Of a stretch of 64,000 bases of DNA, positions 7,462 through 45,507 are shown piece by piece. Below the pieces are notes generated by a model. That model worked only from the letters and a program-made list of their open reading frames with translations, made no database searches and was not told where the DNA came from. How positions within the stretch are numbered: the stretch's first letter is position 1; every line of letters begins with the position of its first letter. The position numbers and the translations under genes are program-made. Source of the stretch: a virus; IMG/VR virus record IMGVR_UViG_3300030102_006951, positions 42,538 through 106,537 of that record; one strand, 5' to 3'.

Positions 7462-8211
7462 TTACTTTTTTTTAAATAAAGTTGATTTTAAATAGTCTCT
7501 ATTCATTCTAGCGATATTATCTAAAGATATTCCTTTTGGGCATTCTGCTTCGCAAGCCCCAGTATTACTACAATTTCCGAATCCCTCTTTATCCATTTGA
7601 TTAACCATGCTTAAAACTCTTTCTTTAGCTTCAACTTGTCCTTGCGGTAAAAGTGAGAATTGAGATACTTTTGCTCCAACAAATAACATTGCCGAGCTAT
7701 TTTTACATGCTGCAACACAAGCACCACAACCTATACAGGTTGCTGCGTTAAAAGAATCGTCAGCAGCTTCTTTTTTAATTGGTATTGTGTTTGCGTCTAT
7801 TGCGCTACCAGTGTTTATAGATATGTATCCACCAGATTGTTGTATTCTATCGAAAGCACTTCTATCCACGACAAGGTCTTTAATTATTGGAAACGCCTTA
7901 GCTCTAAATGGTTCGATATATATTGTATCACCATTTTTAAATTTTCTCATGTGTAATTGGCAAGTTGTTACACCTTTGTCTGGCCCATGTGGTTCACCGT
8001 TAATATACATTGAGCACATTCCGCATATACCTTCTCTACAGTCATGGTCAAATGCAACTGGCTCTTCACCTTTTTCGATTAATTCTGAGTTCAAAACATC
8101 CATCATTTCCAGGAAGGACATATCCCCAGATATGTTTTCTATATGATAGTCTACAATCTTACCTTTAGATTTTGAATTTTTTTGTCTCCAAATTTTTAAG
8201 TTAAGTTTCAT
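7462..8211 (-). CDS. sdhB: Succinate dehydrogenase/fumarate reductase iron-sulfur subunit
   Basis: 249 aa, the normal length for the Bacteroidota enzyme. All cluster ligands are present. The [2Fe-2S] ligands are Cys58, Cys63, Cys66 and Cys84. The Cys159-x2-Cys162-x2-Cys165-x3-Cys169 array, together with Cys214, Cys220 and Cys224, serves the [4Fe-4S] and [3Fe-4S] centres. In cells this subunit carries electrons between the flavoprotein (SdhA) and the membrane quinone site (SdhC). Neither partner gene is in the window, so the phage protein would have to work with host subunits or do something else. It sits in a phage-like operon of small genes, with similar base composition and no sign of a contig join. 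Promoter: late-type element at 8388. Confidence 0.93.
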
Positions 8212-9299: not shown

Positions 9300-9881
9300 T
9301 TACCACTCAGTAATTTTAATCATAGTTAATTCAGTAAAATACTTACAATTCCACCCATCAATATTTTCATATGACGTTTGTATGTAAAAATTAACAATAT
9401 TTTCTTCATAATCTAGAATTACTGCCTCTAATGGTCTAGATGAACCACCTATTTGTGGCCCTCCGTTGTTATAAGATAGTGGATGTTCAACAATTGACCA
9501 ATTTGAGTTGGTTACATAGAACCCATATGGTTGTATTGTATCGTAATTTAGTATAAAATCGCCATGTCCTGGTACGAAATTAGGTTGTTTTATACCCCAA
9601 ACAGTAACATTTTGCTCAATATCCTCTATTTCATAGAGTGAACCTGAATATCTAAGGCTGGATGTTGTTTTTATTGAATCAAAATGGTTATAAACCGTTC
9701 TTTCATGCGTTTCTAAATTTTCAATATACATTTTAGCATCCAAAAGAAGCCATTCACCGTATAATCTAATCTCATCTGTAGATTCAACAGTTTCTTGAGT
9801 GTCTATTGGCTCAATGGTCTCTTTTTTACAAGAAACAAAGAATAATAGTAGTAATAACGGTATGTAATAAAACTTTTTCAT
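9300..9881 (-). CDS. Predicted lipoprotein, 193 aa
   Basis: I chose ATG 9881 because MKKFYYIPLLLLLFFVSC is a textbook lipoprotein signal, with the lipobox Cys at residue 18. The host-type promoter lies 24 bp upstream. After the Cys comes KKE and an acidic stretch, which resembles the lysine-acid surface-export signal of Bacteroidota lipoproteins. The rest is beta-rich with no family I can name. A phage-encoded early surface lipoprotein could block adsorption of other phages; this is inference only. Confidence 0.7.
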   Translation of the reverse strand: MKKFYYIPLLLLLFFVSCKKETIEPIDTQETVESTDEIRLYGEWLLLDAKMYIENLETHERTVYNHFDSIKTTSSLRYSGSLYEIEDIEQNVTVWGIKQPNFVPGHGDFILNYDTIQPYGFYVTNSNWSIVEHPLSYNNGGPQIGGSSRPLEAVILDYEENIVNFYIQTSYENIDGWNCKYFTELTMIKITEW

Positions 9882-9905
9882 GTCATTTTTTTTGTTAATA
9901 TTAGT

Positions 9906-9936
9906 CAAATATACAAAAAAGTTTTAAATAAACAAA
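9906..9936 (-). promoter_or_regulatory. Bacteroidota-type promoter for lipoprotein gene
   Basis: Minus strand TTTG (9936-9933), 19-bp spacer, TATATTTG (9913-9906). A perfect match to both boxes. Confidence 0.82.
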
Positions 9937-9937
9937 A

Positions 9938-10642
9938 TTATGGTAATATAATTTCGATTTTATCTTGAATTTCTCTAATATTAAGAATATAATTACTTAA
10001 ATCGTCTTCTATTTTTTTATTTGGTAGGTAATACCCTATAGTGTCTGAATTACCTTCATTAAATATATATAACACCTTAAAGTAAAAATTAGGTACACCA
10101 ACTTTATTATCACCAATAACATTTAATGAGTCACTTAAATCACCACCAGTAACTACTTTAACACTATCATTGATTAATACTAGGTTTCTTACATATGATT
10201 CTAGTTTTTTCCAAGCGCCTCTATTTAATTTTGGGGATTGTGGTGACATGTTAGACATTAGAAATGTTTCATCCATTTGTTCTTGGTCGCAAGATTCATC
10301 TGCTGATGCTTTTAGGTGGCCTCTATCATAACCGCTACCTTTATAATCTTTAAGACTTGCTGATTTGGTAGATATTAAGCCATCTTCTTTAAAGTTATTT
10401 TTTCTTTTAGCTTTAACTTCACATGTTAAATCTTTTGGGGTTATTGTATATTGGACCCAATTTGGTTGTTCGTATTTTTCATTGTATGATAATGAATAAC
10501 CATTTCTGTGATATATTGTTGTATCATCTTTATTAATACTTGTTGTATCATCTTTATTAATGCCAGCTTCTGGTGTTGGCATTGCTTCACAACTATTAAC
10601 TACTGTAGTTAATAAAATCGCTAATGTCATTTCTTTAATCAT
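9938..10642 (-). CDS. Lipoprotein DNA/RNA non-specific endonuclease (DRGH family)
   Basis: 234 aa. Asp106-Arg-Gly-His109 in YDRGHLKASAD is the catalytic motif of the beta-beta-alpha Me nuclease family (NUC1/Serratia type), with a following NMSPQ and LNRGAW that fit the metal-binding Asn region. The N-terminus is a hydrophobic signal ending in VVNSC (Cys18), so the enzyme is probably exported and lipid-anchored. An eight-residue direct repeat (INKDDTTS, INKDDTTI) follows the anchor as a linker. Possible roles: scavenging nucleotides, or destroying DNA of competing phages at the envelope. It is the last gene of an operon that starts at 12181. Confidence 0.85.
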   Translation of the reverse strand: MIKEMTLAILLTTVVNSCEAMPTPEAGINKDDTTSINKDDTTIYHRNGYSLSYNEKYEQPNWVQYTITPKDLTCEVKAKRKNNFKEDGLISTKSASLKDYKGSGYDRGHLKASADESCDQEQMDETFLMSNMSPQSPKLNRGAWKKLESYVRNLVLINDSVKVVTGGDLSDSLNVIGDNKVGVPNFYFKVLYIFNEGNSDTIGYYLPNKKIEDDLSNYILNIREIQDKIEIILP

Positions 10643-14176: not shown

Positions 14177-14755
14177 TTATAAAAATAAATTAAATTTAAT
14201 CATTTTAATGGCTATTGCTAGACATATGATTCCAAAAACTTTTCTTAATACCATCATTCCATTCTTGCCTAATATCTTTGATAGTTTATCACTAAACTTT
14301 AATGTGGCATATACAACTATCAGGTTTAGGATAATACCAATCAATATTGTGTAAAATGGGTATAATGAATTAAAAGATATTATCGTTGTTAATGAGCCTG
14401 GACCAGCTATTAATGGAAATGCCAATGGGACAATGGATGAGCCTTCCGTATCTGGTTCGCTTTTGAAAAAAGTTAATCCTAGTACCAGTTCTAAGCCCAT
14501 GAAAAATAATATTAGCCCACCAGCGATTGAAAATGAAGCAACATCTATTCCTAAGAATGATAGTGCCCTCTCACCAGTAAACAAAAATAAGACCATTATA
14601 AAAAAGGATATTAATGTTGCTTTAAGACTTTCTATCTTACCAACCTTTTCTCTTAAGTCTAAAACTATGGGTATTGAACCAAATATATCAATAACCGCAA
14701 AGAGTGTCATACTTATTGTTAAAATTTCATTTATCATAATTCCGTTGTTACCCAT
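14177..14755 (-). CDS. MarC-family integral membrane protein
   Basis: 192 aa with six hydrophobic segments. The pattern LTISMTLFAVIDIFGSIPIV near the N-terminus and SSIVPLAFPLIAGPGSLTTI in the middle are typical MarC signatures. MarC proteins are inner-membrane proteins of unresolved function, found in nearly all bacteria. ATG 14737 (MINEILTISM) is an alternative start that better matches family N-termini. A MarC gene is unexpected in a phage and looks host-derived, though its base composition matches its neighbours. Confidence 0.85.
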   Translation of the reverse strand: MGNNGIMINEILTISMTLFAVIDIFGSIPIVLDLREKVGKIESLKATLISFFIMVLFLFTGERALSFLGIDVASFSIAGGLILFFMGLELVLGLTFFKSEPDTEGSSIVPLAFPLIAGPGSLTTIISFNSLYPFYTILIGIILNLIVVYATLKFSDKLSKILGKNGMMVLRKVFGIICLAIAIKMIKFNLFL

Positions 14756-43323: not shown

Positions 43324-43357
43324 AAAAAGGCTTCTCATTAGAGAGGCCTTTTTTGTT
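43324..43357 (+). terminator. Intrinsic terminator after capsid gene
   Basis: AAAAAGGCTTCTC pairs with GAGAGGCCTTTTT (one G-T pair) around ATTA, followed by T's. Confidence 0.8.
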
Positions 43358-44256: not shown

Positions 44257-45507
44257 ATGGGTAGATTATTAATAATCTTATTTATTTGTTTTATAAATAT
44301 AAATGGTTTTGGTCAGTTAAAATGTGGAACTGATGAATATAATAGACCATTCATAAGACAATATCCCGAAAAATACGATAAGATAGAAAAAGATATTCAA
44401 AACTATCTTAGAAACCCAAAGGTTAAATCAGATGGTACTTATGTCATACCAGTTGTATTTCATATTGTGTATAATCACTGGAAAGAGAACCTTAACGACA
44501 GTGTTATTATTCAACAATTAAATGTATTAAATGATAGGTTTAATTTAAGAAACGCTGATACTATACTATTAACCGATACACTACAAAATTGGAAGGGTAA
44601 TTTTAAAATTACATTTGAATTGGCCCATTTAGACCCAGATGGTTATCCAACAACTGGTATTACAAGAACTTATACAAATGTTGGTGAATTTTCATATTGG
44701 AGTAATCCAGTCAAAAAGGCAAGTCAGGGTAAAGCGGGCTGGCCGAATGACAGATATCTTAATATTTGGGTTTGTGACCTTTATGACGGGCTTATGGGTT
44801 ATGCACAGTTTCCTGGTGGAGAAGACTGGTCGGACGGAGTGGTTATAGATTGGCAAAGTGTTGGTGATAGAGTTTATCCTTGGACTTATTCAATATATGA
44901 TAAATGGGCTAAGGGTCACGTGTTAGTGCATGAAATAGGTCATTGGTTAAACCTTAAACACCCATGGGGTAATTATGGGCCTTGTGGTGATGACCATATT
45001 CCAGAAACTGGGTTACAGGATGGACCTATTTACCCAAGTGCAGAATGTCCAGATACTCTATTTAGTACTTGCGACACACCAGAGAGGATATTTGTAAAAC
45101 ACTATATGGATTATGTTGGTGCGGATTGTATGTGTACGTTTACAAAAAATCAAGTAGTTAGGGGGATAGCCTCTATGGAGACATATAGACAAGACTTATT
45201 AAATAATTACGTCCCCAAACCAAATGTGACTGGTTTTGAAAACACTATGGTTAGACCAACATATACTAAGGGTAGAGTCGTAATTGAGTTTCCGAAATAC
45301 GAAGGTAAATTAGAAATAATGGTATTTGATATGATTGGTAGGTTAGTTTATAAAACCACAACTACACATCCATTTATTGATTTTAAATTAAATATGGGTA
45401 ATGGTAGTTACTTAATAGATATAATTAAAGACGAACGAAGGGTATTCCAGGAAAAAATAATTATTAATTCTGCATCTCCTTATGGGGCTAATTTTTTAAA
45501 TAATTGA
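44257..45507 (+). CDS. Secreted M43-type metalloprotease with type IX-like sorting domain
   Basis: 416 aa. Signal peptide MGRLLIILFICFININGFGQ. The catalytic domain carries HEIGHWLNLKH (about residues 225-235, the HExxHxxGxxH zinc site with Asn in place of Gly) and the Met-turn MDYVGADCMC (about 284), the pattern of pappalysin/cytophagalysin M43 peptidases. The last 85 residues (LEIMVFDMIGRLVYKTTT, MGNGSYLIDIIKDERRVFQE, KIII) follow the type A C-terminal sorting domain of Bacteroidota type IX secretion. It would be exported and released or anchored by host machinery. No separate promoter is seen; it probably reads through from 43390. Confidence 0.85.
   Translation: MGRLLIILFICFININGFGQLKCGTDEYNRPFIRQYPEKYDKIEKDIQNYLRNPKVKSDGTYVIPVVFHIVYNHWKENLNDSVIIQQLNVLNDRFNLRNADTILLTDTLQNWKGNFKITFELAHLDPDGYPTTGITRTYTNVGEFSYWSNPVKKASQGKAGWPNDRYLNIWVCDLYDGLMGYAQFPGGEDWSDGVVIDWQSVGDRVYPWTYSIYDKWAKGHVLVHEIGHWLNLKHPWGNYGPCGDDHIPETGLQDGPIYPSAECPDTLFSTCDTPERIFVKHYMDYVGADCMCTFTKNQVVRGIASMETYRQDLLNNYVPKPNVTGFENTMVRPTYTKGRVVIEFPKYEGKLEIMVFDMIGRLVYKTTTTHPFIDFKLNMGNGSYLIDIIKDERRVFQEKIIINSASPYGANFLNN

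What the first reader, a model, noticed from the sequence alone, without database searches (positions are those of the whole stretch)
44257..45507. Phage protease that appears built for the host's type IX secretion system
The M43-type protease between the head genes and the tail genes has a signal peptide, an HEIGHWLNLKH zinc site, and a C-terminal 85 residues with the FDMIGRLVY ... GSYLIDI ... KIII pattern of type A sorting domains. It would use the flavobacterial type IX pathway to reach the surface or medium. Possible jobs: receptor shaving, blocking rival phages, opening surface layers at lysis, or virion attachment. A phage cargo of this kind is, to my knowledge, rarely or not described.
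Basis: partly seen in the sequence, partly recalled or inferred. Interest (0 to 1): 0.82.

Follow-up and report, generated by a model that had tools for sequence, protein, structure and literature searches.

The report
Phage protease exported by host secretion
A large virus that infects Bacteroidota bacteria carries a gene for a dormant protein-cutting enzyme tagged so that the infected cell's own secretion machine (type IX) should push it outside; at least eleven other phages carry the same tagged enzyme, so it is a standing part of phage biology rather than a one-off, although what it cuts is not known.

Summary
Window 44257-45507 (+) encodes a 416-aa pappalysin (M43) protease: a Bacteroidota-style signal peptide obeying the "Q-rule", a cysteine-switch pro-segment, an intact HEIGHWLNLKH site and Met-turn, then a seven-stranded C-terminal domain that passes the curated TIGR04183 cut-off and resembles a cargo domain solved inside the Flavobacterium T9SS. 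Eleven further phage contigs carry the same design; all twelve pass the cut-off. The eleven complete proteins form one strongly supported clade, in differing neighbourhoods and even in phages whose head genes barely match. Catalytic dN/dS is about 0.07, sorting-domain dN/dS 0.17-0.33. The phage lacks Shine-Dalgarno sites and its nearest isolate infects Flavobacterium, so a T9SS host is likely. A distant relative carries the enzyme domain on a long protein without signal peptide or sorting domain, probably a virion part. Best reading: an exoprotease secreted by the infected cell, acting on surface or matrix proteins. Phage-encoded T9SS cargo was already reported (2019, 2020) for other proteins, so this is a new variant, not a new kind. 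Substrate and benefit remain untested.

The parts
44257..45507 (+). M43 (pappalysin) zymogen protease with T9SS type A sorting domain, 416 aa
   Evidence: 11 further phage homologues
44257..44313 (+). Sec signal peptide, residues 1-19, followed by Q20 (Bacteroidota Q-rule)
   Evidence: sequence; strongest hydrophobic N-terminus among 191 ORFs of the phage; Q kept after the signal peptide in all 11 full-length phage homologues; Q-rule from PMC5837995
44314..44436 (+). pro-segment with cysteine-switch Cys23 (residues about 20-60; exact end not known)
   Evidence: aligns with promirolysin, whose Cys23 blocks the zinc (PMC6949598); Cys kept in all 11 full-length homologues, followed by G, A or K
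44437..45204 (+). M43 catalytic domain (residues 61-316)
   Evidence: PF05572; mirolysin E=1.5e-51, ulilysin; dN/dS about 0.07
44929..44961 (+). zinc site HEIGHWLNLKH, residues 225-235 (general base E226)
   Evidence: motif intact in all homologues
45106..45108 (+). Met-turn Met284
   Evidence: same residue as mirolysin Met284; invariant in the 7-sequence alignment
45256..45468 (+). T9SS type A sorting domain (residues 334-404), seven-stranded beta domain
   Evidence: TIGR04183 over cut-off; model pLDDT 81.7 with 7 strands; Foldseek to T9SS substrate chain 8glk_D, TM 0.78 by target
45469..45504 (+). extension beyond the sorting domain (residues 405-416, SASPYGANFLNN); disordered in the model
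   Evidence: SPYG-like motif in 9 of 12 phage homologues, absent in L017, L119, L120; low pLDDT
43534..44238 (+). 234-aa protein of unknown function, 18 bases upstream of the protease gene; possibly co-transcribed
   Evidence: no homologue among the loci searched, no PHROG match
43324..43353 (+). terminator-like hairpin between the major head protein gene and the protease unit
   Evidence: pattern scan only

Best explanation
The gene encodes a dormant exoprotease that the infected bacterium secretes for the phage. Steps: (1) the host Sec system exports it and signal peptidase cuts before Gln20 (inferred from the Q-rule); (2) in the periplasm it is held inactive because Cys23 of the pro-segment caps the zinc (inferred from promirolysin); (3) its C-terminal beta domain is recognised by the host type IX translocon, which moves it across the outer membrane and removes or exchanges the domain (domain shown by profile and fold; transport inferred); (4) outside, with calcium, it activates itself and cuts exposed proteins on the infected cell, its neighbours or the surrounding matrix (inferred). 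The likeliest benefit is clearing surface or matrix proteins so that virions leave and spread or reach new cells; feeding the host and excluding rival phages are live alternatives. Odds: T9SS-directed secreted protease 0.9; surface or matrix proteins outside the cell as the target 0.65; virion release or spread as the main benefit about 0.4.
For: Anatomy: M43 and TIGR04183 over cut-off; catalytic site, Met-turn, cysteine switch and four disulfide cysteines match mirolysin; CTD model matches a T9SS-bound substrate domain and PorZ. Repetition: 12 phage contigs with the same design, all over the CTD cut-off; the 11 complete proteins are one clade at 100/100 support. Selection: catalytic dN/dS 0.07-0.08 and CTD 0.17-0.33 among close homologues. 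Host: SD-like sites 5.1% against 3.8% in shuffles with A at -3 in 68% of genes, as in a Flavobacterium phage and unlike two cyanophages at 28-39%, matching F. johnsoniae translation (PMC6847099); nearest isolate by head protein and terminase infects Flavobacterium; Q-rule kept in 11 of 11. Outside target: a distant phage homologue keeps the M43 domain on a 1131-aa protein with no signal peptide or CTD, amid other long signal-less genes, so two delivery formats would both place it outside the cell. Other T9SS-tagged proteins in related phages include a subtilase, a polysaccharide lyase and an SprB-repeat protein.
Against: No experiment shows secretion, activity or a substrate. The host is not known, so its T9SS is inferred. 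The full-length fold model is poor (pLDDT 47). The CTD is less constrained than the enzyme, and most homologues have an odd C-terminal extension after it. Pfam's own CTD model is below cut-off. Timing is unknown: no late-promoter motif was found and the gene lies in different neighbourhoods in different phages.
Confidence: 0.72

Rival explanations
1. Nutrient-type auxiliary gene: the secreted protease digests dissolved or particulate protein so that the infected cell gains amino acids for virion production, mirroring the degradative T9SS secretome of Bacteroidota.
For: Other phage T9SS cargo are degradative enzymes (subtilase, polysaccharide lyase; endoglucanase and GH39 in Cryophage, PMC7468147). 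The window phage also encodes an SdhB and a nuclease with an export-type N-terminus, and SdhB recurs in two other carriers.
Against: A lytic infection leaves little time for gain; a virion-borne version of the enzyme domain would not fit feeding.
Confidence: 0.25
2. Superinfection exclusion: the secreted enzyme shaves receptors or gliding adhesins from the infected cell and its neighbours, shutting out rival phages.
For: Surface localisation is the natural outcome of T9SS export; proposed also for Cryophage cargo (PMC7468147). The gene moves between phages whose terminase or head genes barely match, as expected of a competition gene.
Against: Shaving its own receptor would also limit the phage's spread; no phage receptor is known here; no direct evidence.
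Confidence: 0.2
3. Virion protein: the protease is a structural or tail-associated enzyme used at entry, and its sorting-domain resemblance is incidental.
For: The gene lies next to head genes; a distant relative does carry the M43 domain on a probable virion protein.
Against: Signal peptide with Q-rule in all 11 full-length homologues, the CTD over cut-off in all 12, and disulfide and calcium features argue for export; the probable virion version lacks both signals.
Confidence: 0.06
4. Recent chance capture of a host exoprotease gene with no role in the phage, or an assembly join of host and phage DNA.
For: GC of the gene is slightly above the phage mean (33.6% vs 30.6%); the immediately upstream gene has no homologue in the loci searched.
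Against: Twelve phage contigs, one clade, strong purifying selection.
Confidence: 0.03

Closest known systems
Mirolysin of Tannerella forsythia (pappalysin family M43; PDB 6r7u/6r7v/6r7w)
   Same: Best solved relative (E=1.5e-51); same cysteine-switch position, zinc site, Met-turn and disulfide cysteines; secreted zymogen of a Bacteroidota member, one of the KLIKK proteases with a C-terminal secretion domain (PMC4404884).
   Different: Phage-encoded; sorting domain is type A (TIGR04183), not the KLIKK type; most members have an SPYG-type extension after the domain; forms its own clade against the few cellular homologues sampled.
Cryophage T9SS cargo (Bellas et al. 2020, PMC7468147)
   Same: Phage-encoded proteins with T9SS type A sorting domains thought to use the host system.
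   Different: Cryophage is a 76-kb Bacteroidetes phage with an endoglucanase, a GH39 enzyme and a PA14 protein; here a zymogen protease conserved across several large phage lineages.
T9SS sorting-domain proteins in gut crAss-BACON cluster 2 phages (PMC6949934)
   Same: T9SS sorting-domain proteins next to the head section of a phage genome.
   Different: Function not given; BACON-repeat context, no protease described.
Phage depolymerases (own knowledge)
   Same: Exoenzymes that clear the outside of host cells; the M43 domain on a probable virion protein in L123 resembles this format.
   Different: The window enzyme would be secreted by the infected cell through T9SS and cuts protein, not polysaccharide.

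Membership tests
M43 pappalysin metalloproteases | Extended zinc motif HEXXHXX(G/N/D)XXH with general base Glu and a Met-turn | tested here: met
   HEIGHWLNLKH 225-235, Met284; PF05572 over cut-off
M43 pappalysin metalloproteases | Cysteine-switch pro-segment, two disulfides | tested here: met
   C23, C243/C272, C264/C291 correspond to mirolysin C23, C243-C271, C262-C291; sequence level only
M43 pappalysin metalloproteases | Calcium-dependent proteolysis after autocatalytic activation | not testable with these tools
   needs purified protein
T9SS type A cargo | C-terminal TIGR04183 domain over the curated cut-off | tested here: met
   24.5-28.0 bits vs 23; Pfam PF18962 20.6 vs 27, below its cut-off
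T9SS type A cargo | Sec signal peptide | tested here: met
   hydrophobic N-terminus and Q-rule in all 11 full-length homologues; no SignalP run
T9SS type A cargo | Ig-like seven-stranded CTD fold | tested here: met
   model pLDDT 81.7, 7 strands; 8glk_D E=1.8e-3, TM 0.78 by target; a DUF3244 protein ranks slightly higher
T9SS type A cargo | Domain ends the protein (usual, not known to be strictly required) | tested here: not met
   12-residue extension after the domain; three homologues do end at it
T9SS type A cargo | Secretion depends on host T9SS and CTD removal | not testable with these tools
   host unknown; needs mutants
Phage-encoded T9SS cargo | Gene lies inside a phage genome | tested here: met
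   terminase, portal, head maturation protease, major head protein on the same contig; 11 further contigs classed viral or recognised as phage

The most novel reading that the evidence does not exclude
Large Bacteroidota phages carry a dedicated secretome that rides the host type IX system: a phage-only protease family, subtilases, lyases and binding proteins swapped in and out of variable sites (one lying between the head genes and the convergent minus-strand block), so the infected cell is turned into an exporter of phage enzymes that remodel its surroundings, with some phages instead mounting the same enzyme domain on the virion.
Probability: 0.4. Interest if true: 0.8.

Novelty: new variant of a known kind. 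Interest (0 to 1): 0.62.

Why it matters
If the cargo is secreted, lytic phages reprogramme the outside of Bacteroidota cells during infection, not just the inside. That would add a phage contribution to the extracellular enzymes of aquatic Bacteroidota and a new route for phage competition or spread, and it is testable with existing Flavobacterium T9SS mutants.

Tried and rejected
Full-length structure prediction was too poor to use (pLDDT 47). No T4-type late promoter enrichment (TATAAATA 22 found, 19.7 expected), so late timing is not claimed. No match to PADLOC defence families or PHROGs. The genome scan for cellular homologues gave only one hit, labelled Prochlorococcus, which proved to be phage DNA in a single-cell assembly. 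Considered that phages of this group infect cyanobacteria: rejected because their start sites lack Shine-Dalgarno sequences, unlike two cyanophages. Relatives by taxonomy could not be drawn for a virus record, so the cellular sampling in the tree is thin (plasmid homologues only). The 25.9%-identical protein in a faecal phage fragment is distant and not part of the family.

Full report
Observation. Pfam M43 (E=9.8e-12) and mirolysin (E=1.5e-51) identify a pappalysin. TIGR04183 scores 24.5 bits against a curated cut-off of 23, 28.0 with the C-terminal part alone, and is the only such match in the 158,420-base record. Pfam's sorting-domain model is below its own cut-off (20.6 vs 27), so a single-protein claim would be modest. 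The family removes that doubt.

The family. Scans of viral contigs and genomes gave eleven more phage contigs with the same design: L002-L004 (75-79% in the best segment), L017, L018, L019, L118-L121, and the 3' fragment L122. All twelve CTDs pass the TIGR04183 cut-off in six-frame search: 27.8, 25.4, 29.1, 35.5, 33.4, 35.8, 23.7, 35.0, 36.1, 38.8, 28.7, 34.5. The L018 domain is below cut-off (20.3) when its single start-to-stop protein is scanned. The eleven complete proteins form one clade, 100/100 support, on a branch of 1.47 changes per site, apart from the few plasmid-borne cellular homologues and from L123 (cellular sampling thin, some long branches).

Anatomy and mechanism. A strongly hydrophobic N-terminus is followed by Q20. 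Gln directly after the signal peptide is a Bacteroidetes-specific feature (PMC5837995) and is kept in 11 of 11. Cys23, then E226, Met284 and the cysteines C243/C272 and C264/C291 correspond to promirolysin, where Cys23 blocks the zinc and calcium is needed for activity (PMC6949598). The CTD model (pLDDT 81.7, seven strands) matches 8glk_D, a substrate bound in the T9SS complex (E=1.8e-3, TM 0.78 by target); a DUF3244 protein from Bacteroides ranks first and PorZ is also among the matches. The 12 residues beyond the CTD (an SPYG-like motif in 9 of 12 homologues) are disordered in the model and unexplained.

Selection and mobility. Between the window gene and L002-L004, dN/dS is 0.07-0.08 in the catalytic domain and 0.17-0.33 in the CTD (synonymous sites approach saturation, so these are rough). 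The protease is 75% identical in G003, yet that phage shows only a fragmentary head-protein match and no terminase match: the gene moves between phage lineages. Neighbourhoods differ: beside what reads as ribonucleotide reductase in L003 and methionine aminopeptidase in L019 (by eye), among small genes in L017 and L119.

The site. In 80 relatives found by the major head protein, the stretch after that gene is highly variable. In L070 (contig G025) it holds a subtilase and an SprB-repeat protein, both with T9SS CTDs. Of 50 contigs scanned (48 head-protein relatives, mostly the longer ones, plus L017 and L018), five carried a TIGR04183 match over cut-off, three of them head-protein relatives (G011, G022, G025); G047 fell just below. 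Sorting-domain genes near the head section were also seen in gut phages (PMC6949934).

Host. The phage's own host is not known. Evidence for Bacteroidota: no Shine-Dalgarno excess (5.1% vs 3.8% shuffled) and A-rich starts, like the Flavobacterium phage immuto and unlike two cyanophages, in line with F. johnsoniae (PMC6847099); nearest isolate for both major head protein and terminase is immuto; Q-rule signal peptides. The relative inside the 'Prochlorococcus' single-cell assembly (contigs C4, C9, C18) shows the same start-site signature and the rest of that assembly has no T9SS sorting domain, so it looks like a stray virus, not a cyanophage; infection of that cell cannot be excluded.

A second delivery format. 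L123 and L124 carry an identical 1131-aa protein whose first 300 residues or so are an M43 domain (36% identical, intact site, cysteine-glycine motif), with SprB-type repeats further on. It has no signal peptide and no CTD match, and sits among long genes without signal peptides beside a gene shared with carrier phages. A virion location is inference. If right, two phage groups deliver this enzyme to the outside of cells by different means, which favours an outside target.

What is shown and what is inferred. Shown by sequence: domain content, conservation, clade, selection, phage context. Inferred: export, T9SS use, activation, substrate, benefit.

Novelty. Phage-encoded T9SS cargo is known from Cryophage (PMC7468147) and mentioned for gut phages (PMC6949934); I found no report of a phage pappalysin with a sorting domain in the papers searched (open-licence papers only).

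Noticed in passing
window 7462-8211 (-): A phage-encoded succinate dehydrogenase/fumarate reductase iron-sulfur subunit (NF005746, 438 bits) without partner subunits seen nearby; two other protease-carrying phages, G003 and G057, have it at 84-86% identity. Possible metabolic gene worth its own study.
   Followed up: partly
window 9938-10642 (-) and 9300-9908 (-): A DNA/RNA non-specific endonuclease with an export-type N-terminus next to a lipoprotein with a CKKE-type start common in Bacteroidota (own knowledge); possibly further exported phage proteins.
   Followed up: partly
L123 8010-11405 (and identical L124): M43 protease domain joined to SprB-type repeats on a long protein without signal peptide or sorting domain, probably a virion part.
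   Followed up: partly
L019, L104-L107 (genome G004): The single-cell assembly titled Prochlorococcus sp. AG-409-L21 contains about 160 kb of a phage of this group on contigs C4, C9 and C18: contamination, or a co-sorted or infecting virus.
   Followed up: partly
L070 8015-12748: Four signal-peptide genes in the site after the major head protein, two with T9SS domains (subtilase and SprB-repeat protein).
   Followed up: partly
L084 9682-11673, L086 4757-6838, L087 5949-7328, L070 11792-12748: Signal-peptide proteins ending in a shared motif like KKIIKYVNLMGQEVNPDYTKGFVIEIYDDGSIRKMIR that no sorting-domain model recognises; perhaps an undescribed sorting-signal type.
   Followed up: no
L017 9215-9700, L121 11042-11581 (-), L002 5830-6426: Small signal-peptide proteins with a HELGH motif close to the M43 gene in L017 and L121 (L017 one has no Pfam match), and a DUF2927 signal-peptide protein in L002.
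   Followed up: no
window 14177-14755 (-): MarC/NAAT-family membrane protein nearly identical to one in the phage contig L019 and similar to one two genes from the protease in L121.
   Followed up: no
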